Below, in pieces: positions 36,693-62,656 of a DNA stretch of 64,000 bases. Position numbers and translations under genes: made by a program. Every line of letters begins with the position of its first letter. Positions within the stretch are counted from its first letter, which is position 1. The notes below the pieces were generated by a model, which was not told the DNA's origin, did no database searches, and saw only the letters and a list, made by a program, of their open reading frames with translations. Source of the DNA: Psococerastis gibbosa (Eukaryota; Arthropoda; Insecta; Psocodea; Psocidae); the NCBI GenBank assembly GCA_963971405.1, contig OZ020493.1, positions 1,798,001 to 1,862,000 of the forward strand, in the 5' to 3' direction.

Positions 36693-37439
36693 GTGAGTAC
36701 TTATGGACTAAAGGGCGTAAAGCTTGGGAAGGCTTTGCCCCCCCCCCCTCCTCGAGCACTGTGCGACGTGGTTAATACTTCATTGTCATATATAAGGGAT
36801 AACCAAATTTTTATTTCAACGCTCGAATTAGTAAACAGTGAAATCATAAGGTACTCAAGTCTACAGTAGACTTATCTAATTCTTCAGCATGCAGGTGAAG
36901 TACTGGAAGTGCCGGACTAACCACTATCTTTTTTTTTCTAGCAGTCGGGCGGTTTCAATTGACTAGTGGGTACAATGTTTGACTGATTATGAAAAAAATG
37001 TTCAACAATTCCTACACACGGAGGGAATTTCAAACGTGAAGACACACTCCAGTGAATTGCGGAAGAATTTCGATAATCGGACAACTACATAAATATTTGT
37101 GGGTGAGTACTTTTGGACTCAGGGGCGTAAGGTGTCCTTCCCTCCCCCAGCCTCGAGCATTGTAATACGTGGTGGTTCATACGTCATTTTCCCCTTTGCA
37201 GCATTATGAATAGTAGCATTCCTAATAAGGAATATACATAAAAGATTTAATACAGTTTGTGGGTGAGTACTTATGGACTCGGGGCGAACAGCTATACCTA
37301 TGTAAATAAACATATATGTAGGGAATAAGGAATATTTATAAGGAAGGAATAACCCAGTTTTTATTTGCAGACTCCAATTAGTAAAGTGTAAACTTATGTC
37401 TGCAGTAGACATATTTAAGATCTACATAAATATTTGTGA
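36693..37439 (+). repeat. Unit T1b
   Basis: Monomer starts: A 36693, D 36895, B 37103, C 37263. Confidence 0.9.
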
Positions 37440-39262: not shown

Positions 39263-40543
39263 GTGAGTACTTATGGACTGAAGGGCGTAAAGTTTGGGAA
39301 GGCTTTGCCCCCCCCCTCCTCGAGCATTGTGCGACGTGGTTCATACTTCATGGTCATATATAAGGGATAAACAAGTTTTTATTTCCACGCTCGAATTAGT
39401 AAACAGTGAAATCATAAGGTACTCAAGTCTACAGTAGACTTATCTAATTCTTCAGCATGCAGGTGAAATGGACTGAAGGGCGTAACGTTTGGGAAGGCTT
39501 TGCCCCCCCCCCCCCTCCTCGAGCATTGTGCGACGTGGTTCATACTTCATGGTCATATATAAGGGATAACCAAGTTTTTATTTCAACGCTCGAAGTAGTA
39601 AACAGTGAAATCATAAGGTACTCAAGTCTACAGTAGACTTATCTAATTCTTCAGCATGCAGGTGAAGTACTGGAAGTGCCGGACTAACCACTATCTTTTT
39701 TTTTCTAGCAGTCGGGCGGTTTCAATTGACTAGTGGGTACAATGTTTGACTGATTATGAAAAAAATGTTCAACAATTCCTACACACGGAGGGAATTTCAA
39801 ACGTGAAGACACACTCCAGTGAATTGCGGAAGACTTTCGATAATCGGACAACTACATAAATATTTGTGGGTGAGTACTTTTGGACACAGAGGCGTAATGT
39901 GTCCTTCCCTCTCCCAGCCTCGAGCATTGTAAGACGTGGTGGTTCATACGCCATGGTCCCCTTTGCAGCATTATGAATAGTAGCATTCCTAATAAGGAAT
40001 ATTCATAAAAGATTTAATACAGTATGTGGGTGAGTACATGTGGACTCGGGGCGAACAGCTACACCCATATAAATAAATATATATGTAGGGAATAAGGAAT
40101 ATTTATAAGGAAGGAATAACCCAGTTTTTATTTGCAGACTCCAATTAGTAAAGTGTAAACTCATGTCTGCAGTAGACATATTTAAGATCTACATATATAT
40201 TTGTGGGTGAGTACTTTTGGACTCAGGGGCGTAATGTGTCCTTCCCTCCCCCAGCCTCGAGCATTGTAAGACGTGGTGGTTCATACGTCATTTTCCCCTT
40301 TGCAGCATTATGAATAGTAGCATTCCTAATAAGGAATATACATAAAAGATTTAATACAGTTTGTGGGTGAGTACTTATGGACTCGGGGCGAACAGCTATA
40401 CCTATGTAAATAAACATATATGTAGGGAATAAGGAATATTTATAAGGAAGGAATAACCCAGTTTTTATTTGCAGACTCCAATTAGTAAAGTGTAAACTCA
40501 TGTCTGCAGTAGACATATTTAAGATCTACATAAATATTTGTGA
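39263..40543 (+). repeat. Unit T3
   Basis: Monomer starts: A 39263, A' 39463, D 39662, B 39870, C 40030, B 40207, C 40367. Confidence 0.9.
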
Positions 40544-41290
40544 GTGAGTACTTATGGACTAAAGGGCGTAAAGCTTGGGAAGGCTTTGCCCCCCCCCCCT
40601 CCTCGAGCACTGTGCGACGTGGTTAATACTTCATTGTCATATATAAGGGATAACCAAATTTTTATTTCAACGCTCGAATTAGTAAACAGTGAAATCATAA
40701 GGTACTCAAGTCTACAGTAGACTTATCTAATTCTTCAGCATGCAGGTGAAGTACTGGAAGTGCCGGACTAACCACTATCTTTTTTTTTCTAGCAGTCGGG
40801 CGGTTTCAATTGACTAGTGGGTACAATGTTTGACTGATTATGAAAAAAATGTTCAACAATTCCTACACACGGAGGGAATTTCAAACGTGAAGACACACTC
40901 CAGTGAATTGCGGAAGAATTTCGATAATCGGACAACTACATAAATATTTGTGGGTGAGTACTTTTGGACTCAGGGGCGTAAGGTGTCCTTCCCTCCCCCA
41001 GCCTCGAGCATTGTAATACGTGGTGGTTCATACGTCATTTTCCCCTTTGCAGCATTATGAATAGTAGCATTCCTAATAAGGAATATACATAAAAGATTTA
41101 ATACAGTTTGTGGGTGAGTACTTATGGACTCGGGGCGAACAGCTATACCTATGTAAATAAACATATATGTAGGGAATAAGGAATATTTATAAGGAAGGAA
41201 TAACCCAGTTTTTATTTGCAGACTCCAATTAGTAAAGTGTAAACTTATGTCTGCAGTAGACATATTTAAGATCTACATAAATATTTGTGA
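40544..41290 (+). repeat. Unit T1b
   Basis: Monomer starts: A 40544, D 40746, B 40954, C 41114. Confidence 0.9.
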
Positions 41291-43419
41291 GTGAGTACTT
41301 ATGGACTAAAGGGCGTAAAGCTTGGGAAGGCTTTGCCCCCCCCCCCTCCTCGAGCACTGTGCGACGTGGTTCATACTTCATTGTCATATATAAAGGATAA
41401 CCAAATTTTTATTTCAACGCTCGAATTAGTAAACAGTGAAATCATAAGGTACTCAAGTCTACAGTAGACTTATCTAATTCTTCAGCATGCAGGTGAAGTA
41501 CTGGAAGTGCCGGACTAACCACTATCTTTTTTTTTCTAGCAGTCGGGCGGTTTCAATTGACTAGTGGGTACAATGTTTGACTGATTATGAAAAAAATGTT
41601 CAACAATTCCTACACACGGAGGGAATTTCAAACGTAAAGACACACTCCAGTGGATTGCGGAAGACTTTCGATAATCGGACAACTACATAAATATTTGTGG
41701 GTGAGTACTTTTGGACACAGAGGCGTAATGTGTCCTTCCCTCTCCCAGCCTCGAGCATTGTAAGACGTGGTGGTTCATACGCCATGGTCCCCTTTGCAGC
41801 ATTATGAATAGTAGCATTCCTAATAAGGAATATTCATAAAAGATTTAATACAGTATGTGGGTGAGTACATGTGGACTCGGGGCGAACAGCTACACCTATA
41901 TAAATAAATATAAATGTAGGGAATAAGGAATATTTATAAGGAAGGAATAACCCAGTTTTTATTTGCAGACTCCAATTAGTAAAGTGTAAACTCATGTCTG
42001 AAGTAGACATATCTAAGATCTACATAAATATTTGTGAGTGAGTACTTTTGGACTCAGGGGCGTAATGTGTCCTTCCCTTCCCCAGCCTCGAGCATTGTAA
42101 GACGTGGTGGTTCATACGCCATGGTCCCCTTTGCAGCATTATGAATAGTAGCATTCCTAATAAGGAATGTACATAAAAGATTTAATACAGTATGTAGGTG
42201 AGCACTTATGGACTCGGGGCGAACAGCTACACCTATATAAATTAATATATACGTAGGGAATTAGGAATATTTATAAGGAAGGAATAACCCAGTTTTTATT
42301 TGCAGACTCCAATAAGTAAAGTGTAAACTCATGTCTGCAGTAGACATATTTAACACGGAGGGAATTTCAAAAGTGAAGACAAACTCCAGTGAATTGCGGA
42401 AGACTTTCGAAAATCGGACAACTACATAAATATTTGTGCGTGAGTACTTTTGGACACAGAGGCGTAATGTGTCCTTCCCTCTCCCAGCCTCGAGCATTGT
42501 AAGACGTGGTGGTTCATACGCCATGGTCCCCTTTGCAGCATTATGAATAGTAGCATTCCTAATAAGGAATATTCATAAAAGATTTAATACAGTATGTGGG
42601 TGAGTACATGTGGACTCGGGGAGAACAGCTACACCTATATAAATAAATATAAATGTAGGGAATAAGGAATATTTATCAGGAAGGAATAACCCAGTTTTTA
42701 TTTGCAGACTCCAATTAGTAAAGTGTAAACTCATGTCTGAAGTAGACATATCTAAGATCTACATAAATATTTGTGAGTGAGTACTTTTGGACTCAGGGGC
42801 GTAATGTGTCCTTCCCTTCCCCAGCCTCGAGCATTGTAAGACGTGGTGGTTCATACGCCATGGTCCCCTTTGCAGCATTATGAATAGTAGCATTCCTAAT
42901 AAGGAATGTACATAAAAGATTTAATACAGTATGTAGGTGAGCACTTATGGACTCGGGGCGAACAGCTACACCTATATAAATTAATATATACGTAGGGAAT
43001 TAGGAATATTTATAAGGAAGGAACAACCCTGTTTTTATTTGCAGACTCCAATAAGTAAAGTGTAAACTCATGTCTGCAGTAGACATATTTAACACGGAGG
43101 GAATTTCAAAAGTGAAGACAAACTCCAGTGAATTGCGGAAGACTTTCGAAAATCGGACAACTACATAAATATTTGTGGGTGAGTACTTTTGGACTCAGGG
43201 GCGTAATGTGTCCTTCCCTCCCCCAGCCTCGAGCATTGTAAGACGTGGTGGTTCATACGTCATTATAACGCCTACGCCTATATAAATAAATATATATGTA
43301 GGGAATAAGGAATATTTATAAGGAAGGAATAGCCCAGTTTTTATTTGCAGACTCCAATTAGTAAAGTGTAAACTCATGTCTGCAGTAGTCATATTTAAGA
43401 TCTACATAAATATTTGTTA
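41291..43419 (+). repeat. Unit T6
   Basis: Monomer starts: A 41291, D 41493, B 41701, C 41861, B 42038, C 42198, d 42353, B 42440, C 42600, B 42777, C 42937, d 43092, bc 43179. First unit of the complete superunit. Confidence 0.9.
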
Positions 43420-44167
43420 GTGAGTACTTATGGACTGAAGGGCGTAAAGTTTGGGAAGGCTTTGCCCCCCCCCCCCTCCTCGAGCACTGTGCGACGTGGT
43501 TCATACTTCATGGTCATATATAAGGGATCAACAAGTTTTTATTTCCACGCTCGAATTAGTAAACAGTGAAATCATAATGTACTCAAGTCTACAGTAGACT
43601 TATCTAATTCTTCAGCATGCAGGTGAAGTACTGGAAGTGCCGGACTAACCACTATCTTTTTTTTTCTAGCAGTCGGGCTGTTTCAATTGACTAGTGGGTA
43701 CAATGTTTGACTGATTATGAAAAAAATGTTCAACAATTCCTACACACGGAGGGAATTTTAAAAGTGAAGACAAACTCCAGTGAATTGCGGAAGACTTTCG
43801 AAAATCGGACAACTACATAAATATTTGTGGGTGAGTACTTTTGGACTCAGGGGCGTAATGTGTGCTTCCCTCCCCCAGCCTCGAGCATTGTAAGACGTGG
43901 TGGTTCATACGTCATTTTCCCCTTTGCAGCATTATGAATAGTAGCATTCCTAATAAGGAATATACATAAAAGATTTAATACAGTTTGTGGGTGAGTACTT
44001 ATGGACTCGGGGCGAACAGCTATACCTATGTAAATAAACATATATGTAGGGAATAAGGAATATTTATAAGGAAGGAATAACCCAGTTTTTATTTGCAGAC
44101 TCCAATTAGTAAAGTGTAAACTCATGTCTGCAGTAGACATATTTAAGATCTACATAAATATTTGTGA
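43420..44167 (+). repeat. Unit T1c
   Basis: Monomer starts: A 43420, D 43623, B 43831, C 43991. Confidence 0.9.
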
Positions 44168-45991
44168 GTGAGTACTTATGGACTAAAGGGCGTAAAGCTT
44201 GGGAAGGCTTTGCCCCCCCCCCCCTCCTCGAGCACTGTGCGACGTGGTTCATACTTCATTGTCATATATAAGGGATAACCAAATTTTTATTTCAACGCTC
44301 GAATTAGTAAACAGTGAAATCATAAGGTACTCAAGTCTACAGTAGACTTATCTAATTCTTCAGCATGCAGGTGAAGTACTGGAAGTGCCGGACTAACCAC
44401 TATCTTTTTTTTTCTAGCAGTCGGGCGGTTTCAATTGACTAGTGGGTACAATGTTTGACTGATTATGAAAAAAATGTTCAACAATTCCTACACACGGAGG
44501 GAATTTCAAACGTAAAGACACACTCCAGTGGATTGCGGAAGACTTTCGATAATCGGACAACTACATAAATATTTGTGGGTGAGTACTTTTGGACACAGAG
44601 GCGTAATGTGTCCTTCCCTCTCCCAGCCTCGAGCATTGTAAGTCGTGGTGGTTCATACGCCATGGTCCCCTTTGCAGCATTATGAATAGTAGCATTCCTA
44701 ATAAGGAATATTCATAAAAGATTTAATACAGTTTGTGGGTGAGTACTTATGGACTCGGGGCGAACAGCTATACCTATGTAAATAAACATATATGTAGGGA
44801 ATAAGGAATATTTATAAGGAAGGAATAACCCAGTTTTTATTTGCAGACTCCAATTAGTAAAGTGTAAACTCATGTCTGAAGTAGACACATCTAAGATCTA
44901 CATAAATATTTGTGAGTGAGTACTTTTGGACTCAGGGGCGTAATGTGTCCTTCCCTTCCCCAGCCTCGAGCATTGTAAGACGTGGTGGTTCATACGCCAT
45001 GGTCCCCTTTGCAGCATTATGAATAGTAGCATTCCTAATAAGGAATATTCATAAAAGATTTAATACAGTATGTGGGTGAGTACATGTGGACTCGGGGAGA
45101 ACAGCTACACCTATATAAATAAATATAAATGTAGGGAATAAGGAATATTTATCAGGAAGGAATAACCCTTTTTTTATTTGCAGACTCCAATTAGTAAAGT
45201 GTAAACTCATGTCTGAAGTAGACATATCTAAGATCTACATAAATATTTGTGAGTGAGTACTTTTGGACTCAGGGGCGTAATGTGTCCTTCCCTTCCCCAG
45301 CCTCGAGCATTGTAAGACGTGGTGGTTCATACGCCAAGGTCCCCTTTGCAGCATTATGAATAGTAGCATTCCTAATAAGGAATGTACATAAAAGATTTAA
45401 TACAGTATGTAGGTGAGCACTTATGGACTCGGGGCGAACAGCTACACCTATATAAATTAATATATACGTAGGGAATTAGGAATATTTATAAGGAAGGAAC
45501 AACCCAGTTTTTATTTGCAGACTCCAATAAGTAAAGTGTAAACTCATGTCTGCAGTAGACATATTTAACACGGAGGGAATTTCAAAAGTGAAGACAAACT
45601 CCAGTGAATTGCGGAAGACTTTCGAAAATCGGACAACTACATAAATATTTGTGGGTGAGTACTTTTGGACTCAGGGGCGTAATGTGTGCTTCCCTCCCCC
45701 AGCCTCGAGCATTGTAAGACGTGGTGGTTCATACGTCATTTTCCCCTTTGCAGCATTATGAATAGTAGCATTCCTAATAAGGAATATACATAAAAGATTT
45801 AATACAGTTTGTGGGTGAGTACTTATGGACTCTGGGCGAACAGCTATACCTATGTAAATAAACATATATGTAGGGAATAAGGAATATTTATAAGGAAGGA
45901 ATAACCCAGTTTTTATTTGCAGACTCCAATTAGTAAAGTGTAAACTCATGTCTGCAGTAGACATATTTAAGATCTACATAAATATTTGTGA
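44168..45991 (+). repeat. Unit T7
   Basis: Monomer starts: A 44168, D 44371, B 44579, C 44739, B 44916, C 45076, B 45253, C 45413, d 45568, B 45655, C 45815. All T7 markers are present. Matches 8657-10482 at a shift of about 35.51 kb. Confidence 0.9.
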
Positions 45992-47045
45992 GTGAGTACT
46001 TATGGACTAAAGGGCGTAAAGCTTGGGAAGGCTTTGCCCCCCCCCCCCTCCTCGAGCACTGTGCGACGTGGTTCATACTTCATTGTCATATATAAGGGAT
46101 AACCAAATTTTTATTTCAACGCTCGAATTAGTAAACAGTGAAATCATAAGGTACTCAAGTCTACAGTAGACTTATCTAATTCTTCAGCATGCAGGTGAAG
46201 TACTGGAAGTGCCGGACTAACCACTATCTTTTTTTTTCTAGCAGTCGGGCGGTTTCAATTGACTAGTGGGTACAATGTTTGACTGATTATGAAAAAAATG
46301 TTCAACAATTGCTACACACGGAGGGAATTTCAAACGTAAAGACACACTCCAGTGGATTGCGGAAGACTTTCGATAATCGGACAACTACATAAATATTTGT
46401 GGGTGAGTACTTTTGGACACAGAGGCGTAATGTATCCTTCCCTCTCCCAGCCTCGAGCATTGTAAGTCGTGGTGGTTCATACGCCATGGTCCCCTTTGCA
46501 GCATTATGAATAGTAGCATTCCTAATAAGGAATATTCATAAAAGATTTAATACAGTATGTGGGTGAGTACATGTGGACTCGGGGCGAACAGCTACACCTA
46601 TATAAATTAATATATACGTAGGGAATTAGGAATATTTATAAGGAAGGAATAACCCAGTTTTTATTTGCAGACTCCAATAAGTAAAGTGTAAACTCATGTC
46701 TGCAGTAGACATATTTAACACGGAGGGAATTTCAAAAGTGAAGACAAACTCCAGTGAATTGCGGAAGACTTTCGAAAATCGGACAACTACATTAATATTT
46801 GTGGGTGAGTACTTTTGGACTCAGGGGCGTAATGTGTCCTTCCCTCCCCCAGCCTCGAGCATTGTAAGACGTGGTGGTTCATACGTCATTATAACGCCTA
46901 CGCCTATATAAATAAATATATATGTAGGGAATAAGGAATATTTATAAGGAAGGAATAGCCCAGTTTTTATTTGCAGACTCCAATTAGTAAAGTGTAAACT
47001 CATGTCTGCAGTAGTCATATTTAAGATCTACATAAATATTTGTTA
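45992..47045 (+). repeat. Unit T4
   Basis: Monomer starts: A 45992, D 46195, B 46403, C 46563, d 46718, bc 46805. Private changes: AATTGCTACAC in D, TGTATCC in B, ACATTAATAT in d. Confidence 0.9.
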
Positions 47046-47792
47046 GTGAGTACTTATGGACTGAAGGGCGTAAAGTTTGGGAAGGCTTTGCCCCCCCCCC
47101 CTCCTCGAGCACTGTGCGACGTGGTTCATACTTCATGGTCATATATAAGGGATAAACAAGTTTTTATTTCCACGCTCGAATTAGTAAACAGTGAAATCAT
47201 AATGTACTCAAGTCTACAGTAGACTTATCTAATTCTTCAGCATGCAGGTGAAGTACTGGAAGTGCCGGACTAACCACTATCTTTTTTTTTCTAGCAGTCG
47301 GGCTGTTTCAATTGACTAGTGGGTACAATGTTTGACTGATTATGAAAAAAATGTTCAACAATTCCTACACACGGAGGGAATTTTAAAAGTGAAGACAAAC
47401 TCCAGTGAATTGCGGAAGACTTTCGAAAATCGGACAACTACATAAATATTTGTGGGTGAGTACTTTTGGACTCAGGGGCGTAATGTGTCCTTCCCTCCCC
47501 CAGCCTCGAGCATTGTAAGACGTGGTGGTTCATACGTCATTTTCCCCTTTGCAGCATTATGAATAGTAGCATTCCTAATAAGGAATATACATAAAAGATT
47601 TAATACAGTTTGTGGGTGAGTACTTATGGACTCGGGGCGAACAGCTATACCTATGTAAATAAACATATATGTAGGGAATAAGGAATATTTATAAGGAAGG
47701 AATAACCCAGTTTTTATTTGCAGACTCCAATTAGTAAAGTGTAAACTCATGTCTGCAGTAGACATATTTAAGATCTACATAAATATTTGTGA
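47046..47792 (+). repeat. Unit T1a
   Basis: Monomer starts: A 47046, D 47248, B 47456, C 47616. Confidence 0.9.
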
Positions 47793-48877
47793 GTGAGTAC
47801 TTATGGACTAAAGGGCGTAAAGCTTGGGAAGGCTTTGCCCCCCCCCCCCTCCTCGGGCACTGTGCGACGTGGTTAATACTTCATTGTCATATATAAGGGA
47901 TAACCAAATTTTTATTTCAACGCTCGAATTAGTAAACAGTGAAATCATAAGGTACTCAAGTCTACAGTAGACTTATCTAATTCTTCAGCATGCAGGTGAA
48001 GTACTGGAAGTGCCGGACTAACCACTATCTTTTTTTTTCTAGCAGTCGGGCGGTTTCAATTGACTAGTGGGTACAATGTTTGACTGATTATGAAAAAAAT
48101 GTTCAACAATTCCTACACACGGAGGGAATTTCAAACGTGAAGACACACTCCAGTGAATTGCGGAAGACTTTCGATAATCGGACAACTACATAAATATTTG
48201 TGGGTGAGTACTTTTGGACTCAGGGGCGTAAGGTGTCCTTCCCTCCCCCAGCCTCGAGCATTGTAATACGTGGTGGTTCATACGTCATTTTCCCCTTTGC
48301 AGCATTATGAATAGTAGCATTCCTAATAAGGAATATACATAAAAGATTTAATACAGTTTGTGGGTGAGTACTTATGGACTCGGGGCGAACAGCTATACCT
48401 ATGTAAATAAACATATATGTAGGGAATAAGGAATATTTATAAGGAAGGAATAACCCAGTTTTTATTTGCAGACTCCAATTAGTAAAGTGTAAACTCATGT
48501 CTGAAGTAGACACATCTAAGATCTACATAAATATTTGTGAGTGAGTACTTTTGGACTCAGGGGCGTAATGTGTCCTTCCCTTCCCCAGCCTCGAGCATTG
48601 TAAGACGTGGTGGTTCATACGCCATGGTCCCCTTTGCAGCATTATGAATAGTAGCATTCCTAATAAGGAATATTCATAAAAGATTTAATACAGTATGTGG
48701 GTGAGTACATGTGGACTCGGGGAGAACAGCTACACCTATATAAATAAATATAAATGTAGGGAATAAGGAATATTTATCAGGAAGGAATAACCCAGTTTTT
48801 ATTTGCAGACTCCAATTAGTAAAGTGTAAACTCATGTCTGCAGTAGACATATTTAAGATCTACATAAATATTTGTTA
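47793..48877 (+). repeat. Unit T2
   Basis: Monomer starts: A 47793, D 47996, B 48204, C 48364, B 48541, C 48701. Confidence 0.9.
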
Positions 48878-50157
48878 GTGAGTACTTATGGACTGAAGGG
48901 CGTAAAGTTTGGGAAGGCTTTGCCCCCCCCCTCCTCGAGCATTGTGCGACGTGGTTCATACTTCATGGTCATATATAAGGGATAAACAAGTTTTTATTTC
49001 CACGCTCGAATTAGTAAACAGTGAAATCATAAGGTACTCAAGTCTACAGTAGACTTATCTAATTCTTCAGCATGCAGGTGAAATGGACTGAAGGGCGTAA
49101 CGTTTGGGAAGGCTTTGCCCCCCCCCCCCCTCCTCGAGCATTGTGCGACGTGGTTCATACTTCATGGTCATATATAAGGGATAACCAAGTTTTTATTTCA
49201 ACGCTCGAAGTAGTAAACAGTGAAATCATAAGGTACTCAAGTCTACAGTAGACTTATCTAATTCTTCAGCATGCAGGTGAAGTACTGGAAGTGCCGGACT
49301 AACCACTATCTTTTTTTTTCTAGCAGTCGGGCGGTTTCAATTGACTAGTGGGTACAATGTTTGACTGATTATGAAAAAAATGTTCAACAATTCCTACACA
49401 CGGAGGGAATTTCAAACGTGAAGACACACTCCAGTGAATTGCGGAAGACTTTCGATAATCGGACAACTACATAAATATTTGTGGGTGAGTACTTTTGGAC
49501 ACAGAGGCGTAATGTGTCCTTCCCTCTCCCAGCCTCGAGCATTGTAAGACGTGGTGGTTCATACGCCATGGTCCCCTTTGCAGCATTATGAATAGTAGCA
49601 TTCCTAATAAGGAATATTCATAAAAGATTTAATACAGTATGTGGGTGAGTACATGTGGACTCGGGGCGAACAGCTACACCCATATAAATAAATATATATG
49701 TAGGGAATAAGGAATATTTATAAGGAAGGAATAACCCTGTTTTTTTTGCACACTCCAATTAGTAAAGTGTAAACTCATGTCTGCAGTAGACATATTTAAG
49801 ATCTACATATATATTTGTGGGTGAGTACTTTTGGACTCAGGGGCGTAATGTGTCCTTCCCTCCCCCAGCCTCGAGCATTGTAAGACGTGGTGGTTCATAC
49901 GTCATTTTCCCCTTTGCAGCATTATGAATAGTAGCATTCCTAATAAGGAATATACATAAAAGATTTAATACAGTTTGTGGGTGAGTACTTATGGACTCGG
50001 GGCGAACAGCTATACCTATGTAAATAAACATATATGTAGGGAATAAGGAATATTTATAAGGAAGGAATAACCCAGTTTTTATTTGCAGACTCCAATTAGT
50101 AAAGTGTAAACGCATGTCTGCAGTAGACATATTTAAGATCTACATAAATATTTGTGA
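48878..50157 (+). repeat. Unit T3
   Basis: Monomer starts: A 48878, A' 49078, D 49277, B 49485, C 49645, B 49821, C 49981. C 49981 has AAACGCATG, shared only with the T3 at 57746, so those two are sister copies. Confidence 0.9.
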
Positions 50158-50903
50158 GTGAGTACTTATGGACTAAAGGGCGTAAAGCTTGGGAAGGCTT
50201 TGCCCCCCCCCCTCCTCGAGCACTGTGCGACGTGGTTAATACTTCATTGTCATATATAAGGGATAACCAAATTTTTATTTCAACGCTCGAATTAGTAAAC
50301 AGTGAAATCATAAGGTACTCAAGTCTACAGTAGACTTATCTAATTCTTCAGCATGCAGGTGAAGTACTGGAAGTGCCGGACTAACCACTATCTTTTTTTT
50401 TCTAGCAGTCGGGCGGTTTCAATTGACTAGTGGGTACAATGTTTGACTGATTATGAAAAAAATGTTCAACAATTCCTACACACGGAGGGAATTTCAAACG
50501 TGAAGACACACTCCAGTGAATTGCGGAAGAATTTCGATAATCGGACAACTACATAAATATTTGTGGGTGAGTACTTTTGGACTCAGGGGCGTAAGGTGTC
50601 CTTCCCTCCCCCAGCCTCGAGCATTGTAATACGTGGTGGTTCATACGTCATTTTCCCCTTTGCAGCATTATGAATAGTAGCATTCCTAATAAGGAATATA
50701 CATAAAAGATTTAATACAGTTTGTGGGTGAGTACTTATGGACTCGGGGCGAACAGCTATACCTATGTAAATAAACATATATGTAGGGAATAAGGAATATT
50801 TATAAGGAAGGAATAACCCAGTTTTTATTTGCAGACTCCAATTAGTAAAGTGTAAACTTATGTCTGCAGTAGACATATTTAAGATCTACATAAATATTTG
50901 TGA
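50158..50903 (+). repeat. Unit T1b
   Basis: Monomer starts: A 50158 (ten C), D 50359, B 50567, C 50727. Confidence 0.9.
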
Positions 50904-53034
50904 GTGAGTACTTATGGACTAAAGGGCGTAAAGCTTGGGAAGGCTTTGCCCCCCCCCCCCCTCCTCGAGCACTGTGCGACGTGGTTCATACTTCATTGTC
51001 ATATATAAAGGATAACCAAATTTTTATTTCAACGCTCGAATTAGTAAACAGTGAAATCATAAGGTACTCAAGTCTACAGTAGACTTATCTAATTCTTCAG
51101 CATGCAGGTGAAGTACTGGAAGTGCCGGACTAACCACTATCTTTTTTTTTCTAGCAGTCGGGCGGTTTCAATTGACTAGTGGGTACAATGTTTGACTGAT
51201 TATGAAAAAAATGTTCAACAATTCCTACACACGGAGGGAATTTCAAACGTAAAGACACACTCCAGTGGATTGCGGAAGACTTTCGATAATCGGACAACTA
51301 CATAAATATTTGTGGGTGAGTACTTTTGGACACAGAGGCGTAATGTGTCCTTCCCTCTCCCAGCCTCGAGCATTGTAAGACGTGGTGGTTCATACGCCAT
51401 GGTCCCCTTTGCAGCATTATGAATAGTAGCATTCCTAATAAGGAATATTCATAAAAGATTTAATACAGTATGTGGGTGAGTACATGTGGACTCGGGGCGA
51501 ACAGCTACACCTATATAAATAAATATAAATGTAGGGAATAAGGAATATTTATAAGGAAGGAATAACCCAGTTTTTATTTGCAGACTCCAATTAGTAAAGT
51601 GTAAACTCATGTCTGAAGTAGACATATCTAAGATCTACATAAATATTTGTGAGTGAGTACTTTTGGACTCAGGGGCGTAATGTGTCCTTCCCTTCCCCAG
51701 CCTCGAGCATTGTAAGACGTGGTGGTTCATACGCCATGGTCCCCTTTGCAGCATTATGAATAGTAGCATTCCTAATAAGGAATGTACATAAAAGATTTAA
51801 TACAGTATGTAGGTGAGCACTTATGGACTCGGGGCGAACAGCTACACCTATATAAATTAATATATACGTAGGGAATTAGGAATATTTATAAGGAAGGAAT
51901 AACCCAGTTTTTATTTGCAGACTCCAATAAGTAAAGTGTAAACTCATGTCTGCAGTAGACATATTTAACACGGAGGGAATTTCAAAAGTGAAGACAAACT
52001 CCAGTGAATTGCGGAAGACTTTCGAAAATCGGACAACTACATAAATATTTGTGGGTGAGTACTTTTGGACACAGAGGCGTAATGTGTCCTTCCCTCTCCC
52101 AGCCTCGAGCATTGTAAGACGTGGTGGTTCATACGCCATGGTCCCCTTTGCAGCATTATGAATAGTAGCATTCCTAATAAGGAATATTCATAAAAGATTT
52201 AATACAGTATGTGGGTGAGTACATGTGGACTCGGGGAGAACAGCTACACCTATATAAATAAATATAAATGTAGGGAATAAGGAATATTTATCAGGAAGGA
52301 ATAACCCAGTTTTTATTTGCAGACTCCAATTAGTAAAGTGTAAACTCATGTCTGAAGTAGACATATCTAAGATCTACATAAATATTTGTGAGTGAGTACT
52401 TTTGGACTCAGGGGCGTAATGTGTCCTTCCCTTCCCCAGCCTCGAGCATTGTAAGACGTGGTGGTTCATACGCCATGGTCCCCTTTGCAGCATTATGAAT
52501 AGTAGCATTCCTAATAAGGAATGTACATAAAAGATTTAATACAGTATGTAGGTGAGCACTTATGGACTCGGGGCGAACAGCTACACCTATATAAATTAAT
52601 ATATACGTAGGGAATTAGGAATATTTATAAGGAAGGAACAACCCTGTTTTTATTTGCAGACTCCAATAAGTAAAGTGTAAACTCATGTCTGCAGTAGACA
52701 TATTTAACACGGAGGGAATTTCAAAAGTGAAGACAAACTCCAGTGAATTGCGGAAGACTTTCGAAAATCGGACAACTACATAAATATTTGTGGGTGAGTA
52801 CTTTTGGACTCAGGGGCGTAATGTGTCCTTCCCTCCCCCAGCCTCGAGCATTGTAAGACGTGGTGGTTCATACGTCATTATAACGCCTACGCCTATATAA
52901 ATAAATATATATGTAGGGAATAAGGAATATTTATAAGGAAGGAATAGCCCAGTTTTTATTTGCAGACTCCAATTAGTAAAGTGTAAACTCATGTCTGCAG
53001 TAGTCATATTTAAGATCTACATAAATATTTGTTA
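50904..53034 (+). repeat. Unit T6
   Basis: Monomer starts: A 50904, D 51108, B 51316, C 51476, B 51653, C 51813, d 51968, B 52055, C 52215, B 52392, C 52552, d 52707, bc 52794. Matches 14846-16974 at a shift of about 36.06 kb. Confidence 0.9.
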
Positions 53035-54860
53035 GTGAGTACTTATGGACTGAAGGGCGTAAAGTTTGGGAAGGCTTTGCCCCCCCCCCCCCCTCCTCGA
53101 GCACTGTGCGACGTGGTTCATACTTCATGGTCATATATAAGGGATAAACAAGTTTTTATTTCCACGCTCGAATTAGTAAACAGTGAAATCATAATGTACT
53201 CAAGTCTACAGTAGACTTATCTAATTCTTCAGCATGCAGGTGAAGTACTGGAAGTGCCGGACTAACCACTATCTTTTTTTTTCTAGCAGTCGGGCTGTTT
53301 CAATTGACTAGTGGGTACAATGTTTGACTGATTATGAAAAAAATGTTCAACAATTCCTACACACGGAGGGAATTTTAAAAGTGAAGACAAACCCCAGTGA
53401 ATTGCGGAAGACTTTCGAAAATCGGACAACTACATAAATATTTGTGGGTGAGTACTTTTGGACTCAGGGGCGTAATGTGTCCTTCCCTCCCCCAGCCTCG
53501 AGCATTGTAAGACGTGGTGGTTCATACGTCATTTTCCCCTTTGCAGCATTATGAATAGTAGCATTCCTAATAAGGAATATTCATAAAAGATTTAATACAG
53601 TTTGTGGGTGAGTACTTATGGACTCGGGGCGAACAGCTATACCTATGTAAATAAACATATATGTAGGGAATAAGGAATATTTATAAGGAAGGAATAACCC
53701 AGTTTTTATTTGCAGACTCCAATTAGTAAAGTGTAAACTCATGTCTGAAGTAGACACATCTAAGATCTACATAAATATTTGTGAGTGAGTACTTTTGGAC
53801 TCAGGGGCGTAATGTGTCCTTCCCTTCCCCAGCCTCGAGCATTGTAAGACGTGGTGGTTCATACGCCATGGTCCCCTTTGCAGCATTATGAATAGTAGCA
53901 TTCCTAATAAGGAATATTCATAAAAGATTTAATACAGTATGTGGGTGAGTACATGTGGACTCGGGGAGAACAGCTACACCTATATAAATAAATATAAATG
54001 TAGGGAATAAGGAATATTTATCAGGAAGGAATAACCCTTTTTTTATTTGCAGACTCCAATTAGTAAAGTGTAAACTCATGTCTGAAGTAGACATATCTAA
54101 GATCTACATAAATATTTGTGAGTGAGTACTTTTGGACTCAGGGGCGTAATGTGTCCTTCCCTTCCCCAGCCTCGAGCATTGTAAGACGTGGTGGTTCATA
54201 CGCCAAGGTCCCCTTTGCAGCATTATGAATAGTAGCATTCCTAATAAGGAATGTACATAAAAGATTTAATACAGTATGTAGGTGAGCACTTATGGACTCG
54301 GGGCGAACAGCTACACCTATATAAATTAATATATACGTAGGGAATTAGGAATATTTATAAGGAAGGAACAACCCAGTTTTTATTTGCAGACTCCAATAAG
54401 TAAAGTGTAAACTCATGTCTGCAGTAGACATATTTAACACGGAGGGAATTTCAAAAGTGAAGACAAACTCCAGTGAATTGCGGAAGACTTTCGAAAATCG
54501 GACAACTACATAAATATTTGTGGGTGAGTACTTTTGGACTCAGGGGCGTAATGTGTGCTTCCCTCCCCCAGCCTCGAGCATTGTAAGACGTGGTGGTTCA
54601 TACGTCATTTTCCCCTTTGCAGCATTATGAATAGTAGCATTCCTAATAAGGAATATACATAAAAGATTTAATACAGTTTGTGGGTGAGTACTTATGGACT
54701 CTGGGCGAACAGCTATACCTATGTAAATAAACATATATGTAGGGAATAAGGAATATTTATAAGGAAGGAATAACCCAGTTTTTATTTGCAGACTCCAATT
54801 AGTAAAGTGTAAACTCATGTCTGCAGTAGACATATTTAAGATCTACATAAATATTTGTGA
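53035..54860 (+). repeat. Chimeric unit: T1c-like start joined to T7
   Basis: Monomer starts: A 53035, D 53240, B 53448, C 53608, B 53785, C 53945, B 54122, C 54282, d 54437, B 54524, C 54684. B 53448 has the T1-type CGTCATTTTCCCC but then GGAATATTCAT as in T7. All later T7 markers are present. Confidence 0.87.
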
Positions 54861-55912
54861 GTGAGTACTTATGGACTAAAGGGCGTAAAGCTTGGGAAGG
54901 CTTTGCCCCCCCCCCTCCTCGAGCACTGTGCGACGTGGTTCATACTTCATTGTCATATATAAGGGATAACCAAATTTTTATTTCAACGCTCGAATTAGTA
55001 AACAGTGAAATCATAAGGTACTCAAGTCTACAGTAGACTTATCTAATTCTTCAGCATGCAGGTGAAGTACTGGAAGTGCCGGACTAACCACTATCTTTTT
55101 TTTTCTAGCAGTCGGGCGGTTTCAATTGACTAGTGGGTACAATGTTTGACTGATTATGAAAAAAATGTTCAACAATTCCTACACACGGAGGGAATTTCAA
55201 ACGTAAAGACACACTCCAGTGGATTGCGGAAGACTTTCGATAATCGGACAACTACATAAATATTTGTGGGTGAGTACTTTTGGACACAGAGGCGTAATGT
55301 GTCCTTCCCTCTCCCAGCCTCGAGCATTGTAAGTCGTGGTGGTTCATACGCCATGGTCCCCTTTGCAGCATTATGAATAGTAGCATTCCTAATAAGGAAT
55401 ATTCATAAAAGATTTAATACAGTATGTGGGTGAGTACATGTGGACTCGGGGCGAACAGCTACACCTATATAAATTAATATATACGTAGGGAATTAGGAAT
55501 ATTTATAAGGAAGGAATAACCCAGTTTTTATTTGCAGACTCCAATAAGTAAAGTGTAAACTCATGTCTGCAGTAGACATATTTAACACGGAGGGAATTTC
55601 AAAAGTGAAGACAAACTCCAGTGAATTGCGGAAGACTTTCGAAAATCGGACAACTACATAAATATTTGTGGGTGAGTACTTTTGGACTCAGGGGCGTAAT
55701 GTGTCCTTCCCTCCCCCAGCCTCGAGCATTGTAAGACGTGGTGGTTCATACGTCATTATAACGCCTACGCCTATATAAATAAATATATATGTAGGGAATA
55801 AGGAATATTTATAAGGAAGGAATAGCCCAGTTTTTATTTGCAGACTCCAATTAGTAAAGTGTAAACTCATGTCTGCAGTAGTCATATTTAAGATCTACAT
55901 AAATATTTGTTA
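54861..55912 (+). repeat. Unit T4
   Basis: Monomer starts: A 54861, D 55062, B 55270, C 55430, d 55585, bc 55672. Confidence 0.9.
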
Positions 55913-56659
55913 GTGAGTACTTATGGACTGAAGGGCGTAAAGTTTGGGAAGGCTTTGCCCCCCCCCCCTCCTCGAGCACTGTGCGACGTGGTTCATACTT
56001 CATGGTCATATATAAGGGATAAACAAGTTTTTATTTCCACGCTCGAATTAGTAAACAGTGAAATCATAATGTACTCAAGTCTACAGTAGACTTATCTAAT
56101 TCTTCAGCATGCAGGTGAAGTACTGGAAGTGCCGGACTAACCACTATCTTTTTTTTTCTAGCAGTCGGGCTGTTTCAATTGACTAGTGGGTACAATGTTT
56201 GACTGATTATGAAAAAAATGTTCAACAATTCCTACACACGGAGGGAATTTTAAAAGTGAAGACAAACTCCAGTGAATTGCGGAAGACTTTCGAAAATCGG
56301 ACAACTACATAAATATTTGTGGGTGAGTACTTTTGGACTCAGGGGCGTAATGTGTCCTTCCCTCCCCCAGCCTCGAGCATTGTAAGACGTGGTGGTTCAT
56401 ACGTCATTTTCCCCTTTGCAGCATTATGAATAGTAGCATTCCTAATAAGGAATATACATAAAAGATTTAATACAGTTTGTGGGTGAGTACTTATGGACTC
56501 GGGGCGAACAGCTATACCTATGTAAATAAACATATATGTAGGGAATAAGGAATATTTATAAGGAAGGAATAACCCAGTTTTTATTTGCAGACTCCAATTA
56601 GTAAAGTGTAAACTCATGTCTGCAGTAGACATATTTAAGATCTACATAAATATTTGTGA
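55913..56659 (+). repeat. Unit T1a
   Basis: Monomer starts: A 55913, D 56115, B 56323, C 56483. Confidence 0.9.
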
Positions 56660-57745
56660 GTGAGTACTTATGGACTAAAGGGCGTAAAGCTTGGGAAGGC
56701 TTTGCCCCCCCCCCCCCTCCTCGGGCACTGTGCGACGTGGTTAATACTTCATTGTCATATATAAGGGATAACCAAATTTTTATTTCAACGCTCGAATTAG
56801 TAAACAGTGAAATCATAAGGTACTCAAGTCTACAGTAGACTTATCTAATTCTTCAGCATGCAGGTGAAGTACTGGAAGTGCCGGACTAACCACTATCTTT
56901 TTTTTTCTAGCAGTCGGGCGGTTTCAATTGACTAGTGGGTACAATGTTTGACTGATTATGAAAAAAATGTTCAACAATTCCTACACACGGAGGGAATTTC
57001 AAACGTGAAGACACACTCCAGTGAATTGCGGAAGACTTTCGATAATCGGACAACTACATAAATATTTGTGGGTGAGTACTTTTGGACTCAGGGGCGTAAG
57101 GTGTCCTTCCCTCCCCCAGCCTCGAGCATTGTAATACGTGGTGGTTCATGCGTCATTTTCCCCTTTGCAGCATTATGAATAGTAGCATTCCTAATAAGGA
57201 ATATACATAAAAGATTTAATACAGTTTGTGGGTGAGTACTTATGGACTCGGGGCGAACAGCTATACCTATGTAAATAAACATATATGTAGGGAATAAGGA
57301 ATATTTATAAGGAAGGAATAACCCAGTTTTTATTTGCAGACTCCAATTAGTAAAGTGTAAACTCATGTCTGAAGTAGACACATCTAAGATCTACATAAAT
57401 ATTTGTGAGTGAGTACTTTTGGACTCAGGGGCGTAATGTGTCCTTCCCTTCCCCAGCCTCGAGCATTGTAAGACGTGGTGGTTCATACGCCATGGTCCCC
57501 TTTGCAGCATTATGAATAGTAGCATTCCTAATAAGGAATATTCATAAAAGATTTAATACAGTATGTGGGTGAGTACATGTGGACTCGGGGAGAACAGCTA
57601 CACCTATATAAATAAATATAAATGTAGGGAATAAGGAATATTTATCAGGAAGGAATAACCCAGTTTTTATTTGCAGACTCCAATTAGTAAAGTGTAAACT
57701 CATGTCTGCAGTAGACATATTTAAGATCTACATAAATATTTGTTA
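56660..57745 (+). repeat. Unit T2
   Basis: Monomer starts: A 56660, D 56864, B 57072, C 57232, B 57409, C 57569. B 57072 has a private TTCATGCGTC. Confidence 0.9.
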
Positions 57746-59024
57746 GTGAGTACTTATGGACTGAAGGGCGTAAAGTTTGGGAAGGCTTTGCCCCCCCCCT
57801 CCTCGAGCATTGTGCGACGTGGTTCATACTTCATGGTCATATATAAGGGATAAACAAGTTTTTATTTCCACGCTCGAATTAGTAAACAGTGAAATCATAA
57901 GGTACTCAAGTCTACAGTAGACTTATCTAATTCTTCAGCATGCAGGTGAAATGGACTGAAGGGCGTAACGTTTGGGAAGGCTTTGCCCCCCCCCCCCTCC
58001 TCGAGCATTGTGCGACGTGGTTCATACTTCATGGTCATATATAAGGGATAACCAAGTTTTTATTTCAACGCTCGAAGTAGTAAACAGTGAAATCATAAGG
58101 TACTCAAGTCTACAGTAGACTTATCTAATTCTTCAGCATGCAGGTGAAGTACTGGAAGTGCCGGACTAACCACTATCTTTTTTTTTCTAGCAGTCGGGCG
58201 GTTTCAATTGACTAGTGGGTACAATGTTTGACTGATTATGAAAAAAATGTTCAACAATTCCTACACACGGAGGGAATTTCAAACGTGAAGACACACTCCA
58301 GTGAATTGCGGAAGACTTTCGATAATCGGACAACTACATAAATATTTGTGGGTGAGTACTTTTGGACACAGAGGCGTAATGTGTCCTTCCCTCTCCCAGC
58401 CTCGAGCATTGTAAGACGTGGTGGTTCATACGCCATGGTCCCCTTTGCAGCATTATGAATAGTAGCATTCCTAATAAGGAATATTCATAAAAGATTTAAT
58501 ACAGTATGTGGGTGAGTACATGTGGACTCGGGGCGAACAGCTACACCCATATAAATAAATATATATGTAGGGAATAAGGAATATTTATAAGGAAGGAATA
58601 ACCCTGTTTTTTTTGCACACTCCAATTAGTAAAGTGTAAACTCATGTCTGCAGTAGACATATTTAAGATCTACATATATATTTGTGGGTGAGTACTTTTG
58701 GACTCAGGGGCGTAATGTGTCCTTCCCTCCCCCAGCCTCGAGCATTGTAAGACGTGGTGGTTCATACGTCATTTTCCCCTTTGCAGCATTATGAATAGTA
58801 GCATTCCTAATAAGGAATATACATAAAAGATTTAATACAGTTTGTGGGTGAGTACTTATGGACTCGGGGCGAACAGCTATACCTATGTAAATAAACATAT
58901 ATGTAGGGAATAAGGAATATTTATAAGGAAGGAATAACCCAGTTTTTATTTGCAGACTCCAATTAGTAAAGTGTAAACGCATGTCTGCAGTAGACATATT
59001 TAAGATCTACATAAATATTTGTGA
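57746..59024 (+). repeat. Unit T3
   Basis: Monomer starts: A 57746, A' 57946, D 58144, B 58352, C 58512, B 58688, C 58848. Carries the AAACGCATG shared with 48878. Confidence 0.9.
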
Positions 59025-59771
59025 GTGAGTACTTATGGACTAAAGGGCGTAAAGCTTGGGAAGGCTTTGCCCCCCCCCCCTCCTCGAGCACTGTGCGACG
59101 TGGTTAATACTTCATTGTCATATATAAGGGATAACCAAATTTTTATTTCAACGCTCGAATTAGTAAACAGTGAAATCATAAGGTACTCAAGTCTACAGTA
59201 GACTTATCTAATTCTTCAGCATGCAGGTGAAGTACTGGAAGTGCCGGACTAACCACTATCTTTTTTTTTCTAGCAGTCGGGCGGTTTCAATTGACTAGTG
59301 GGTACAATGTTTGACTGATTATGAAAAAAATGTTCAACAATTCCTACACACGGAGGGAATTTCAAACGTGAAGACACACTCCAGTGAATTGCGGAAGAAT
59401 TTCGATAATCGGACAACTACATAAATATTTGTGGGTGAGTACTTTTGGACTCAGGGGCGTAAGGTGTCCTTCCCTCCCCCAGCCTCGAGCATTGTAATAC
59501 GTGGTGGTTCATACGTCATTTTCCCCTTTGCAGCATTATGAATAGTAGCATTCCTAATAAGGAATATACATAAAAGATTTAATACAGTTTGTGGGTGAGT
59601 ACTTATGGACTCGGGGCGAACAGCTATACCTATGTAAATAAACATATATGTAGGGAATAAGGAATATTTATAAGGAAGGAATAACCCAGTTTTTATTTGC
59701 AGACTCCAATTAGTAAAGTGTAAACTTATGTCTGCAGTAGACATATTTAAGATCTACATAAATATTTGTGA
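59025..59771 (+). repeat. Unit T1b
   Basis: Monomer starts: A 59025, D 59227, B 59435, C 59595. Confidence 0.9.
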
Positions 59772-61904
59772 GTGAGTACTTATGGACTAAAGGGCGTAAA
59801 GCTTGGGAAGGCTTTGCCCCCCCCCCCCCCCTCCTCGAGCACTGTGCGACGTGGTTCATACTTCATTGTCATATATAAAGGATAACCAAATTTTTATTTC
59901 AACGCTCGAATTAGTAAACAGTGAAATCATAAGGTACTCAAGTCTACAGTAGACTTATCTAATTCTTCAGCATGCAGGTGAAGTACTGGAAGTGCCGGAC
60001 TAACCACTATCTTTTTTTTTCTAGCAGTCGGGCGGTTTCAATTGACTAGTGGGTACAATGTTTGACTGATTATGAAAAAAATGTTCAACAATTCCTACAC
60101 ACGGAGGGAATTTCAAACGTAAAGACACACTCCAGTGGATTGCGGAAGACTTTCGATAATCGGACAACTACATAAATATTTGTGGGTGAGTACTTTTGGA
60201 CACAGAGGCGTAATGTGTCCTTCCCTCTCCCAGCCTCGAGCATTGTAAGACGTGGTGGTTCATACGCCATGGTCCCCTTTGCAGCATTATGAATAGTAGC
60301 ATTCCTAATAAGGAATATTCATAAAAGATTTAATACAGTATGTGGGTGAGTACATGTGGACTCGGGGCGAACAGCTACACCTATATAAATAAATATAAAT
60401 GTAGGGAATAAGGAATATTTATAAGGAAGGAATAACCCAGTTTTTATTTGCAGACTCCAATTAGTAAAGTGTAAACTCATGTCTGAAGTAGACATATCTA
60501 AGATCTACATAAATATTTGTGAGTGAGTACTTTTGGACTCAGGGGCGTAATGTGTCCTTCCCTTCCCCAGCCTCGAGCATTGTAAGACGTGGTGGTTCAT
60601 ACGCCATGGTCCCCTTTGCAGCATTATGAATAGTAGCATTCCTAATAAGGAATGTACATAAAAGATTTAATACAGTATGTAGGTGAGCACTTATGGACTC
60701 GGGGCGAACAGCTACACCTATATAAATTAATATATACGTAGGGAATTAGGAATATTTATAAGGAAGGAATAACCCAGTTTTTATTTGCAGACTCCAATAA
60801 GTAAAGTGTAAACTCATGTCTGCAGTAGACATATTTAACACGGAGGGAATTTCAAAAGTGAAGACAAACTCCAGTGAATTGCGGAAGACTTTCGAAAATC
60901 GGACAACTACATAAATATTTGTGGGTGAGTACTTTTGGACACAGAGGCGTAATGTGTCCTTCCCTCTCCCAGCCTCGAGCATTGTAAGACGTGGTGGTTC
61001 ATACGCCATGGTCCCCTTTGCAGCATTATGAATAGTAGCATTCCTAATAAGGAATATTCATAAAAGATTTAATACAGTATGTGGGTGAGTACATGTGGAC
61101 TCGGGGAGAACAGCTACACCTATATAAATAAATATAAATGTAGGGAATAAGGAATATTTATCAGGAAGGAATAACCCAGTTTTTATTTGCAGACTCCAAT
61201 TAGTAAAGTGTAAACTCATGTCTGAAGTAGACATATCTAAGATCTACATAAATATTTGTGAGTGAGTACTTTTGGACTCAGGGGCGTAATGTGTCCTTCC
61301 CTTCCCCAGCCTCGAGCATTGTAAGACGTGGTGGTTCATACGCCATGGTCCCCTTTGCAGCATTATGAATAGTAGCATTCCTAATAAGGAATGTACATAA
61401 AAGATTTAATACAGTATGTAGGTGAGCACTTATGGACTCGGGGCGAACAGCTACACCTATATAAATTAATATATACGTAGGGAATTAGGAATATTTATAA
61501 GGAAGGAACAACCCTGTTTTTATTTGCAGACTCCAATAAGTAAAGTGTAAACTCATGTCTGCAGTAGACATATTTAACACGGAGGGAATTTCAAAAGTGA
61601 AGACAAACTCCAGTGAATTGCGGAAGACTTTCGAAAATCGGACAACTACATAAATATTTGTGGGTGAGTACTTTTGGACTCAGGGGCGTAATGTGTCCTT
61701 CCCTCCCCCAGCCTCGAGCATTGTAAGACGTGGTGGTTCATACGTCATTATAACGACTACGCCTATATAAATAAATATATATGTAGGGAATAAGGAATAT
61801 TTATAAGGAAGGAATAGCCCAGTTTTTATTTGCAGACTCCAATTAGTAAAGTGTAAACTCATGTCTGCAGTAGTCATATTTAAGATCTACATAAATATTT
61901 GTTA
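59772..61904 (+). repeat. Unit T6
   Basis: Monomer starts: A 59772 (15 C), D 59978, B 60186, C 60346, B 60523, C 60683, d 60838, B 60925, C 61085, B 61262, C 61422, d 61577, bc 61664. Confidence 0.9.
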
Positions 61905-62656
61905 GTGAGTACTTATGGACTGAAGGGCGTAAAGTTTGGGAAGGCTTTGCCCCCCCCCCCCCCCCTCCTCGAGCACTGTGCGACGTGGTTCATACTTCAT
62001 GGTCATATATAAGGGATAAACAAGTTTTTATTTCCACGCTCGAATTAGTAAACAGTGAAATCATAATGTACTCAAGTCTACAGTAGACTTATCTAATTCT
62101 TCAGCATGCAGGTGAAGTACTGGAAGTGCCGGACTAACCACTATCTTTTTTTTTCTAGCAGTCGGGCTGTTTCAATTGACTAGTGGGTACAATGTTTGAC
62201 TGATTATGAAAAAAATGTTCAACAATTCCTACACACGGAGGGAATTTTAAAAGTGAAGACAAACCCCAGTGAATTGCGGAAGACTTTCGAAAATCGGACA
62301 ACTACATAAATATTTGTGGGTGAGTACTTTTGGACTCAGGGGCGTAATGTGTCCTTCCCTCCCCCAGCCTCGAGCATTGTAAGACGTGGTGGTTCATACG
62401 TCATTTTCCCCTTTGCAGCATTATGAATAGTAGCATTCCTAATAAGGAATATACATAAAAGATTTAATACAGTTTGTGGGTGAGTACTTATGGACTCGGG
62501 GCGAACAGCTATACCTATGTAAATAAACATATATGTAGGGAATAAGGAATATTTATAAGGAAGGAATAACCCAGTTTTTATTTGCAGACTCCAATTAGTA
62601 AAGTGTAAACTCATGTCTGCAGTAGACATATTTAAGATCTACATAAATATTTGTGA
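61905..62656 (+). repeat. Unit T1c-like
   Basis: Monomer starts: A 61905 (16 C), D 62112, B 62320, C 62480. Sister of the unit at 16975. Confidence 0.88.

What the first reader, a model, noticed from the sequence alone, without database searches (positions are those of the whole stretch)
41291..59771. Three-level satellite organisation with a 9.6-kb superunit
Monomers (160-208 bp) form eight kinds of A-led unit, and units form a superunit T6-T1c-T7-T4-T1a-T2-T3-T1b. The complete copy is 41291-50903. A shorter copy follows directly with constant shifts of 8867-8870 bp. The six-unit block T4-T1a-T2-T3-T1b-T6 occurs whole three times (26535, 45992, 54861), each about 7.04 kb. Three nested levels with monomers of unequal length and variable content is more elaborate than a simple satellite.
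Basis: seen in the sequence. Interest (0 to 1): 0.75.

Follow-up and report, generated by a model that had tools for sequence, protein, structure and literature searches.

The report
Layered satellite DNA array, 9.6-kb repeat
The whole stretch is one non-coding satellite DNA array, probably from a eukaryote, in which short repeats are grouped into units and the units into a 51-repeat block of 9.6 kb that has been copied almost perfectly and reshuffled; this layered layout is known from ape centromeres, though this satellite is not identified.

Summary
All 64 kb is one satellite array (339 monomer starts; main core 276 times on +, none found on -), with no convincing gene or RNA family. The superunit at 41291-50903 has 51 monomers (10 types at 5% divergence). 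The next copy, 50904-59771, differs by 8 substitutions in 8,862 aligned bases and one missing 748-bp unit. The three 7.04-kb blocks differ pairwise by 5-7 substitutions.

The full superunit occurs only once, and its period does not dominate the window. Still, the whole window can be rewritten from it with 20 jumps and 82 mismatches (0.13%); nine other references need 32-80 jumps.

The layering is real, but it is a known kind: a higher-order repeat (HOR) of the "cascading" type described for primate alpha satellite. Most variants fit out-of-step homologous recombination; at least one is a non-homologous deletion. Monomers are 158-242 bp, not 160-208, and the window holds 11 unit compositions, not 8. 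Species, chromosome position and function are unknown. A 3,870-base exact duplication should be checked for assembly error.

The parts
1..64000 (+). Satellite array filling the whole window, head to tail, 339 monomer starts
   Evidence: 276 main cores on + and none on -; 339 starts after splitting the long segments at their internal cores; no Rfam family at gathering score; one ORF of 150 aa or more, 162 aa, no Pfam match above its cut-off
41291..50903 (+). Canonical superunit, 51-monomer HOR, T6-T1c-T7-T4-T1a-T2-T3-T1b, 9613 bp
   Evidence: fewest jumps of the ten references tried for rewriting the window
50904..59771 (+). Second superunit copy, lacking T1c (8868 bp)
   Evidence: 8 substitutions in 8,862 aligned bases, one 748-bp gap
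59772..64000 (+). Third cycle: begins with T6, then departs from the canonical order; the last ~6.7 kb of the window matches ~12.3-19.0 kb
   Evidence: near-identical run of 6,674 collapsed bases with 8 mismatches
26535..33579 (+). Six-unit block T4-T1a-T2-T3-T1b-T6, first copy
45992..53034 (+). Six-unit block, second copy
54861..61904 (+). Six-unit block, third copy
41291..43419 (+). Unit T6 (Eabacabacd), 2129 bp
43420..44167 (+). Unit T1c (Eab), 748 bp; missing from the second copy
44168..45991 (+). Unit T7 (Eababacab), 1824 bp
45992..47045 (+). Unit T4 (Eacd), 1054 bp
47046..47792 (+). Unit T1a (Eab), 747 bp
47793..48877 (+). Unit T2 (Eabab), 1085 bp
48878..50157 (+). Unit T3 (Fabab), 1280 bp
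50158..50903 (+). Unit T1b (Eab), 746 bp; 17-20 substitutions from the T1a and T1c classes; its seven copies in the window show no substitution
   Evidence: homopolymers collapsed
34651..42371 (+). Two overlapping letter-for-letter copies of 3,870 bases, 3,851 apart: newest tandem duplication, or assembly error
   Evidence: longest exact raw repeat
4761..5766 (+). Deleted form of T6 (Xacd); 1,123 collapsed bases missing at a non-homologous junction near 5072/5073

Best explanation
This is a higher-order-repeat satellite array of an unidentified organism, most likely a eukaryote. Monomers of about 160, 177, 200-208 and 241-242 bp (10 types at 5% divergence in the superunit) are grouped into units, and the units into a 51-monomer, 9.6-kb cascading HOR. 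SHOWN: the organisation, the near-identity of copies, and that the window can be written as shifted copies of the superunit, with 15 of 20 joins falling where the two parent segments align in register on at least one side. INFERRED: the copies arose and were homogenised by repeated out-of-step homologous recombination (unequal sister exchange, break-induced replication or gene conversion) between in-register units, with occasional non-homologous deletions and slippage in a poly-C tract. INFERRED, weaker: the array is centromeric or pericentromeric heterochromatin and acts, if at all, through chromatin and not through a coded product.
For: Positions in the superunit keep their own variants: seven T1b copies show no substitution among themselves and differ by 17-20 from the T1a and T1c classes. 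Nine pairs of superunit or block copies compared are 99.83-100% identical. 89% of the homopolymer-collapsed window lies in near-identical repeats of 2.8 kb or more. The canonical reference rewrites the window with 20 jumps and 82 mismatches in 63,580, against 32-61 jumps for six other 9.6-kb stretches and 53-80 for three parts of it. At 11 of 20 jumps the parents are 89% or more identical over 100 bases on both sides, and at 4 more 92% or more on one side; 0.1% of 5,000 random position pairs, over 200 bases, reach 70%. The loss of T1c in copy 2 is one such in-register join. No convincing coding or RNA-family content.
Against: Five of 20 jumps are not in register: one non-homologous deletion, two 2-base length differences, two bounding a short unresolved patch. 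The jumps are not all independent: those at 34825 and 36276 recur at 38676 and 40127 through the 3.85-kb duplication, and 17828 and 62763 are the same join. The path-finding places jumps where they cost least, which favours in-register joins. The superunit lags do not exceed the highest shuffle maximum in autocorrelation. T1a and T1c differ by only 2 substitutions, no more than some copies of one class. Rolling-circle re-insertion could leave similar patterns. No centromere mark was found: no exact CENP-B box, no 10-bp WW peak in the superunit, no unusual single-strand folding in the two stretches tried (z about -1). No reads are available to rule out mis-assembly.
Confidence: 0.85

Rival explanations
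1. The array was built mainly by rolling-circle amplification of extrachromosomal circles holding several units, followed by re-insertion, and not by unequal exchange.
For: A direct tandem pair of 3,870 exact bases at a shift of 3,851 is what a small circle could give; circular DNA from plant satellites is the subject of PMC2543021 (title and start of abstract in a search listing).
Against: The jumps have many sizes, whereas one circle should give runs of one constant period. In the unit list I saw no series of three or more equal periods at unit scale, but ran no dedicated test for it.
Confidence: 0.15
2. Part of the long-range order is an assembly artefact: a mis-resolved satellite in which the same reads were used twice.
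For: 3,870 bases identical to the letter, poly-C tracts included, at 34651 and 38502.
Against: Other superunit and block copies differ at substitutions and in poly-C length; the six-unit block lies in three places with different substitutions; T1b variants are kept by position.
Confidence: 0.12
3. The monomers are remnants of a tandem gene or RNA-gene family (the monomer start GTGAGT and a T9-CTAG stretch look like splice signals; recalled consensus).
For: GTGAGT begins 254 of 276 main cores, counted from the contexts listed; a CTTTTTTTTTCTAG stretch is in the E, F and X segments shown.
Against: No Rfam match at gathering score in the window, and one chance-level match (E 4.5) in a permissive scan of 41291-50903; one ORF of 150 aa or more in 64 kb, with one sub-threshold Pfam match (E 0.17).
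Confidence: 0.03

Closest known systems
Cascading alpha-satellite superHOR, e.g. the 58mer of the orangutan Y (PMC12428378, abstract and discussion read)
   Same: Very long HOR (58 against 51 monomers), monomer types repeated inside the unit, very low divergence between copies (0.25% mean there; 0-0.17% in the nine pairs compared here), and variant copies beside canonical ones.
   Different: There 44 monomer types of ~171-bp alpha satellite over 67 HOR copies, 46 of them canonical; here 10 types at 5% divergence, lengths 158-242 bp, and one full and one shortened copy seen in 64 kb. No alignment to alpha satellite was run.
Willard-type alpha-satellite HORs (human and ape centromeres; PMC11630843, passages)
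   Same: HOR copies far more alike than the different monomers inside one HOR.
   Different: Each monomer type is used once per HOR there; here the types recur.
Chrysolina carnifex pericentromeric satellite (PMC8122249, passage)
   Same: HORs whose lengths are not whole multiples of the monomer (211, 477, 633 bp).
   Different: Dimers and trimers only, in the passage seen.
Chenopodium CficCl-61-40 satellite HORs (PMC6429384, passages)
   Same: HORs outside primates from one satellite family.
   Different: About 40-bp monomers; HOR units of up to a few hundred bp.

Membership tests
Satellite DNA | Long head-to-tail non-coding tandem array | tested here: met
   339 monomer starts in 64 kb; main core 276 times on +, none on -; no Rfam match, no Pfam match above cut-off
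Higher-order repeat (HOR) | Multi-monomer blocks recur with much higher identity than the different monomers inside a block | tested here: met
   Block copies 99.83-100% identical; monomers in one superunit fall in 10 types at 5% and 6 at 10% divergence; a, b, e1 and e2 are ~77-85% alike in gappy pairwise alignments. The contrast is weak for recurring types: T1a and T1c differ by 2 substitutions
Cascading HOR | Monomer types (5% threshold) repeated within one canonical HOR copy | tested here: met
   51 monomers, 10 types; definition and threshold from PMC11630843 passages
Cascading HOR | Many canonical HOR copies in tandem | tested here: inconclusive
   One complete and one shortened copy, the rest rearranged; the array runs off both window ends
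Alpha satellite | ~171-bp monomer | tested here: not met
   Monomer lengths 158-242, mostly 160, 177, 200-208 and 241-242
Alpha satellite | CENP-B box (consensus recalled from memory; present in only part of alpha monomers) | tested here: not met
   0 exact matches in 64 kb, 0.18 expected by chance
Centromeric satellite | CENP-A occupancy / position at the centromere | not testable with these tools
   No genome held for the window, no chromatin data

The most novel reading that the evidence does not exclude
A cascading HOR of 51 monomers outside primates, built from about ten monomer types of unequal length, perhaps with a still larger order: kilobase-scale near-identical matches, one of them including a non-canonical unit order, link the two ends of the window at shifts of about 45 kb. 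This would show that very long superHORs are a general outcome of satellite recombination and do not depend on alpha satellite or on a constant nucleosome-length monomer.
Probability: 0.4. Interest if true: 0.5.

Novelty: new member of a known kind. Interest (0 to 1): 0.35.

Why it matters
If the order holds in reads, this is a compact record of how an HOR array rearranges: one 9.6-kb template explains 64 kb with 20 joins, 15 of them in register on at least one side. It would also extend long cascading HORs to a satellite with unequal monomers; in the titles and abstract starts listed by my searches (open-licence papers only, most not opened) I saw cascading HORs described only for primate alpha satellite. 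It is otherwise an ordinary, though unusually layered, satellite.

Tried and rejected
Origin searches gave nothing. A 3-kb stretch (41291-44290) had no match in phages or plasmids. Exact patterns had no match in viral contigs or in the prokaryote genome collection. None of six sequence words occurred in the paper library. So the organism stays unknown, and "eukaryote" is inference.

Considered and rejected: coding or RNA gene family; alpha satellite (monomer length, CENP-B box); telomere-like repeats (0 TTAGGG or CCCTAA); strong secondary structure (z about -1 for one e1 monomer and one 337-bp dimer; e2, c and d were not folded); 10-bp nucleosome-type periodicity (power 0.66 of background in the superunit).

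Results against a regular superunit period are kept: the superunit lags do not beat the highest of 100 shuffle maxima in autocorrelation, and with composition labels only 7 of 2,000 shuffles reached a repeated run of 7 or more units. So the case rests on sequence identity, position-specific variants and unit order. The unit order was labelled by hand: near-identical variants were merged, the unit at 53035 was called T7 although it is 22-24 substitutions from the other two T7 units (it is the T1c/T7 join), and the leading acd fragment and the truncated last unit were left out (53 of 55 units used). Identity figures are on sequence with C and T runs cut to 7; one search gives both forms.

Full report
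OBSERVATION. The window (64,000 bases, 38-40% G+C in every 2-kb bin) is one tandem array. A 16-base core occurs 276 times on the + strand (up to 5 substitutions) and was not found on the - strand (up to 3). The 275 segments between cores are: 103 of 160 and one of 158 bases (a), 70 of 177 and six of 176 (b), 27 of 242 (c), 14 of 241 (d), 45 of 409-415 (E), 8 of 604-611 (F) and one of 363 (X). Splitting E, F and X at their internal, diverged cores gives 339 monomer starts, with monomers of 158-242 bases.

UNITS AND SUPERUNIT. T6 is Eabacabacd, T1 Eab, T7 Eababacab, T4 Eacd, T2 Eabab, T3 Fabab. The complete superunit T6-T1c-T7-T4-T1a-T2-T3-T1b occupies 41291-50903. The next copy, 50904-59771, lacks T1c and otherwise differs by 8 substitutions in 8,862 aligned bases. 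The six-unit block at 26535, 45992 and 54861 differs pairwise by 5-7 substitutions per ~7,040 bases, with no gap outside homopolymers. Among 21 Eab units, T1b forms one class (7 copies with no substitution) that differs by 17-20 from the T1a and T1c classes; two further units (19946, 21842) are 3 from T1b; T1a and T1c differ by only 2. So for T1b, position in the superunit and not merely unit kind is inherited; for T1a against T1c the distinction is slim.

CONTROLS. In the homopolymer-collapsed unit sequence the highest long lag is 28156 (0.443); none of 100 unit-order shuffles reached it (highest 0.425, mean of maxima 0.361). The superunit lags 8816 (0.416) and 9557 (0.372) stay below the highest shuffle maximum, though this compares one lag with the best of 28,000. 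Within 41291-59771 alone they are the two top peaks (0.848 and 0.645). With variant labels, 31 of 52 successive steps follow the superunit order; 10,000 shuffles give a mean of 4.0 and a maximum of 12. Seven of the 31 are the steps of the defining copy itself; the remaining 24 still exceed every shuffle. With composition labels only, a repeated run of 7 units is reached or passed in 7 of 2,000 shuffles, so that test alone is modest.

REWRITING THE WINDOW. A minimum-cost path through the circular superunit writes all 63,580 collapsed bases with 20 jumps and 82 mismatches (repeated). Nine other references do worse in jumps: five other 9.6-kb stretches need 37-61, the stretch from 50903 needs 32 (with 76 mismatches), and three parts of the superunit need 53-80. 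At 11 of 20 jumps the two parents are at least 89% identical over 100 bases on both sides; at 4 more at least 92% on one side; 5 show no register (one non-homologous 1,123-base deletion near 5073, two 2-base length differences at 36276 and 40127, and two bounding a 188-base patch at 19156-19343). Random pairs of positions average 26% over 200 bases and reach 70% in 0.1% of 5,000. The joins are not all independent, since some are copies of one another, and the path chooses cheap places to jump. This supports but does not prove homologous recombination.

ORIGIN OF THE MONOMERS. Segment d is a plus b with 96 bases missing across their junction; c is b with a ~65-base tail that matches the end of e2 (the second half of E); e1 (the first half of E) looks like the start of a followed by the end of b; F is E with its first monomer doubled. 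These alignments are gappy. The mosaic character points to older rounds of recombination at the monomer level, beneath the recent ones at the superunit level. That ordering is inference.

AGE AND ARTEFACT. Copies are so alike that the superunit expansion is recent or strongly homogenised. The main length-variable site is a poly-C tract (9-17 C; 62 runs of 8 or more), whose length does not follow superunit position, except that the first run of F is 9 C in 8 of 8. Small length differences elsewhere are rare (one a of 158, six b of 176, a 2-base difference among F units). One pair of stretches, from 34651 and 38502, is identical for 3,870 bases, poly-C included: either the newest duplication or an assembly error. 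Reads are needed.

WIDER ORDER. The last ~6.7 kb of the window matches ~12.3-19.0 kb with 8 mismatches, and this stretch includes a non-canonical order after T6; the first 5.0 kb matches copies 45.8 and 54.7 kb downstream with 4 and 2 mismatches (collapsed coordinates). Any two copies of the superunit would match like this, so a larger order than the superunit is possible but not shown.

COMPARISON. PMC11630843 (passages) distinguishes Willard HORs, with each monomer type used once, from cascading HORs, where types recur in the canonical copy, and uses a 5% threshold. By that measure this is a cascading 51-mer with 10 types (37 exact types). The orangutan Y 58mer has 44 types and 0.25% divergence (PMC12428378, abstract and discussion), and a 59mer is reported on orangutan chromosome 13 (PMC11276891, abstract). 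Outside primates, the passages I saw describe shorter HORs: beetle dimers and trimers (PMC8122249) and Chenopodium units of up to a few hundred bases (PMC6429384). Seven listings showed no title or abstract start describing a non-primate HOR of this length; most of those papers were not opened, and only open-licence papers are held.

FUNCTION. Nothing here shows a function. Average monomer spacing (64,000/339, about 189 bases) is near nucleosome repeat length (recalled), which fits heterochromatin, but no exact CENP-B box, WW periodicity or unusual fold was found. The most likely role is structural, in centromeric or pericentromeric chromatin, by analogy only.

Noticed in passing
window-wide, e1 monomers, e.g. 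within 41291-41492: A perfect 17-bp dyad AAGTCTACAGTAGACTT occurs 61 times; the counterpart in b and c (ATGTCTGCAGTAGACAT) keeps most of the symmetry, with one pair changed on both sides and one pair broken, and d carries one further change. Possibly a protein site, possibly chance.
   Followed up: partly
window-wide, E and F segments: A poly-C tract of 9-17 bases is the main length-variable site in otherwise near-identical copies; the first tract of F is 9 in 8 of 8.
   Followed up: partly
34651-38520 and 38502-42371: 3,870 bases identical to the letter, including poly-C tracts, at a shift of 3,851: newest duplication or assembly error.
   Followed up: partly
start of the monomers, window-wide: Monomers a, b and e1 share a start near GTGAGTACTTATGGACT..GGGCG (weaker in e2) although their interiors differ, which could be a conserved binding site or the scar of a founding junction.
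   Followed up: no
4761-5766: Unit X: T6 with 1,123 collapsed bases deleted at a junction without homology, unlike most other joins.
   Followed up: partly
about 57300-64000 against 12300-19000: Near-identical match at a shift of about 45 kb that includes a non-canonical unit order, hinting at a still larger repeat order.
   Followed up: no
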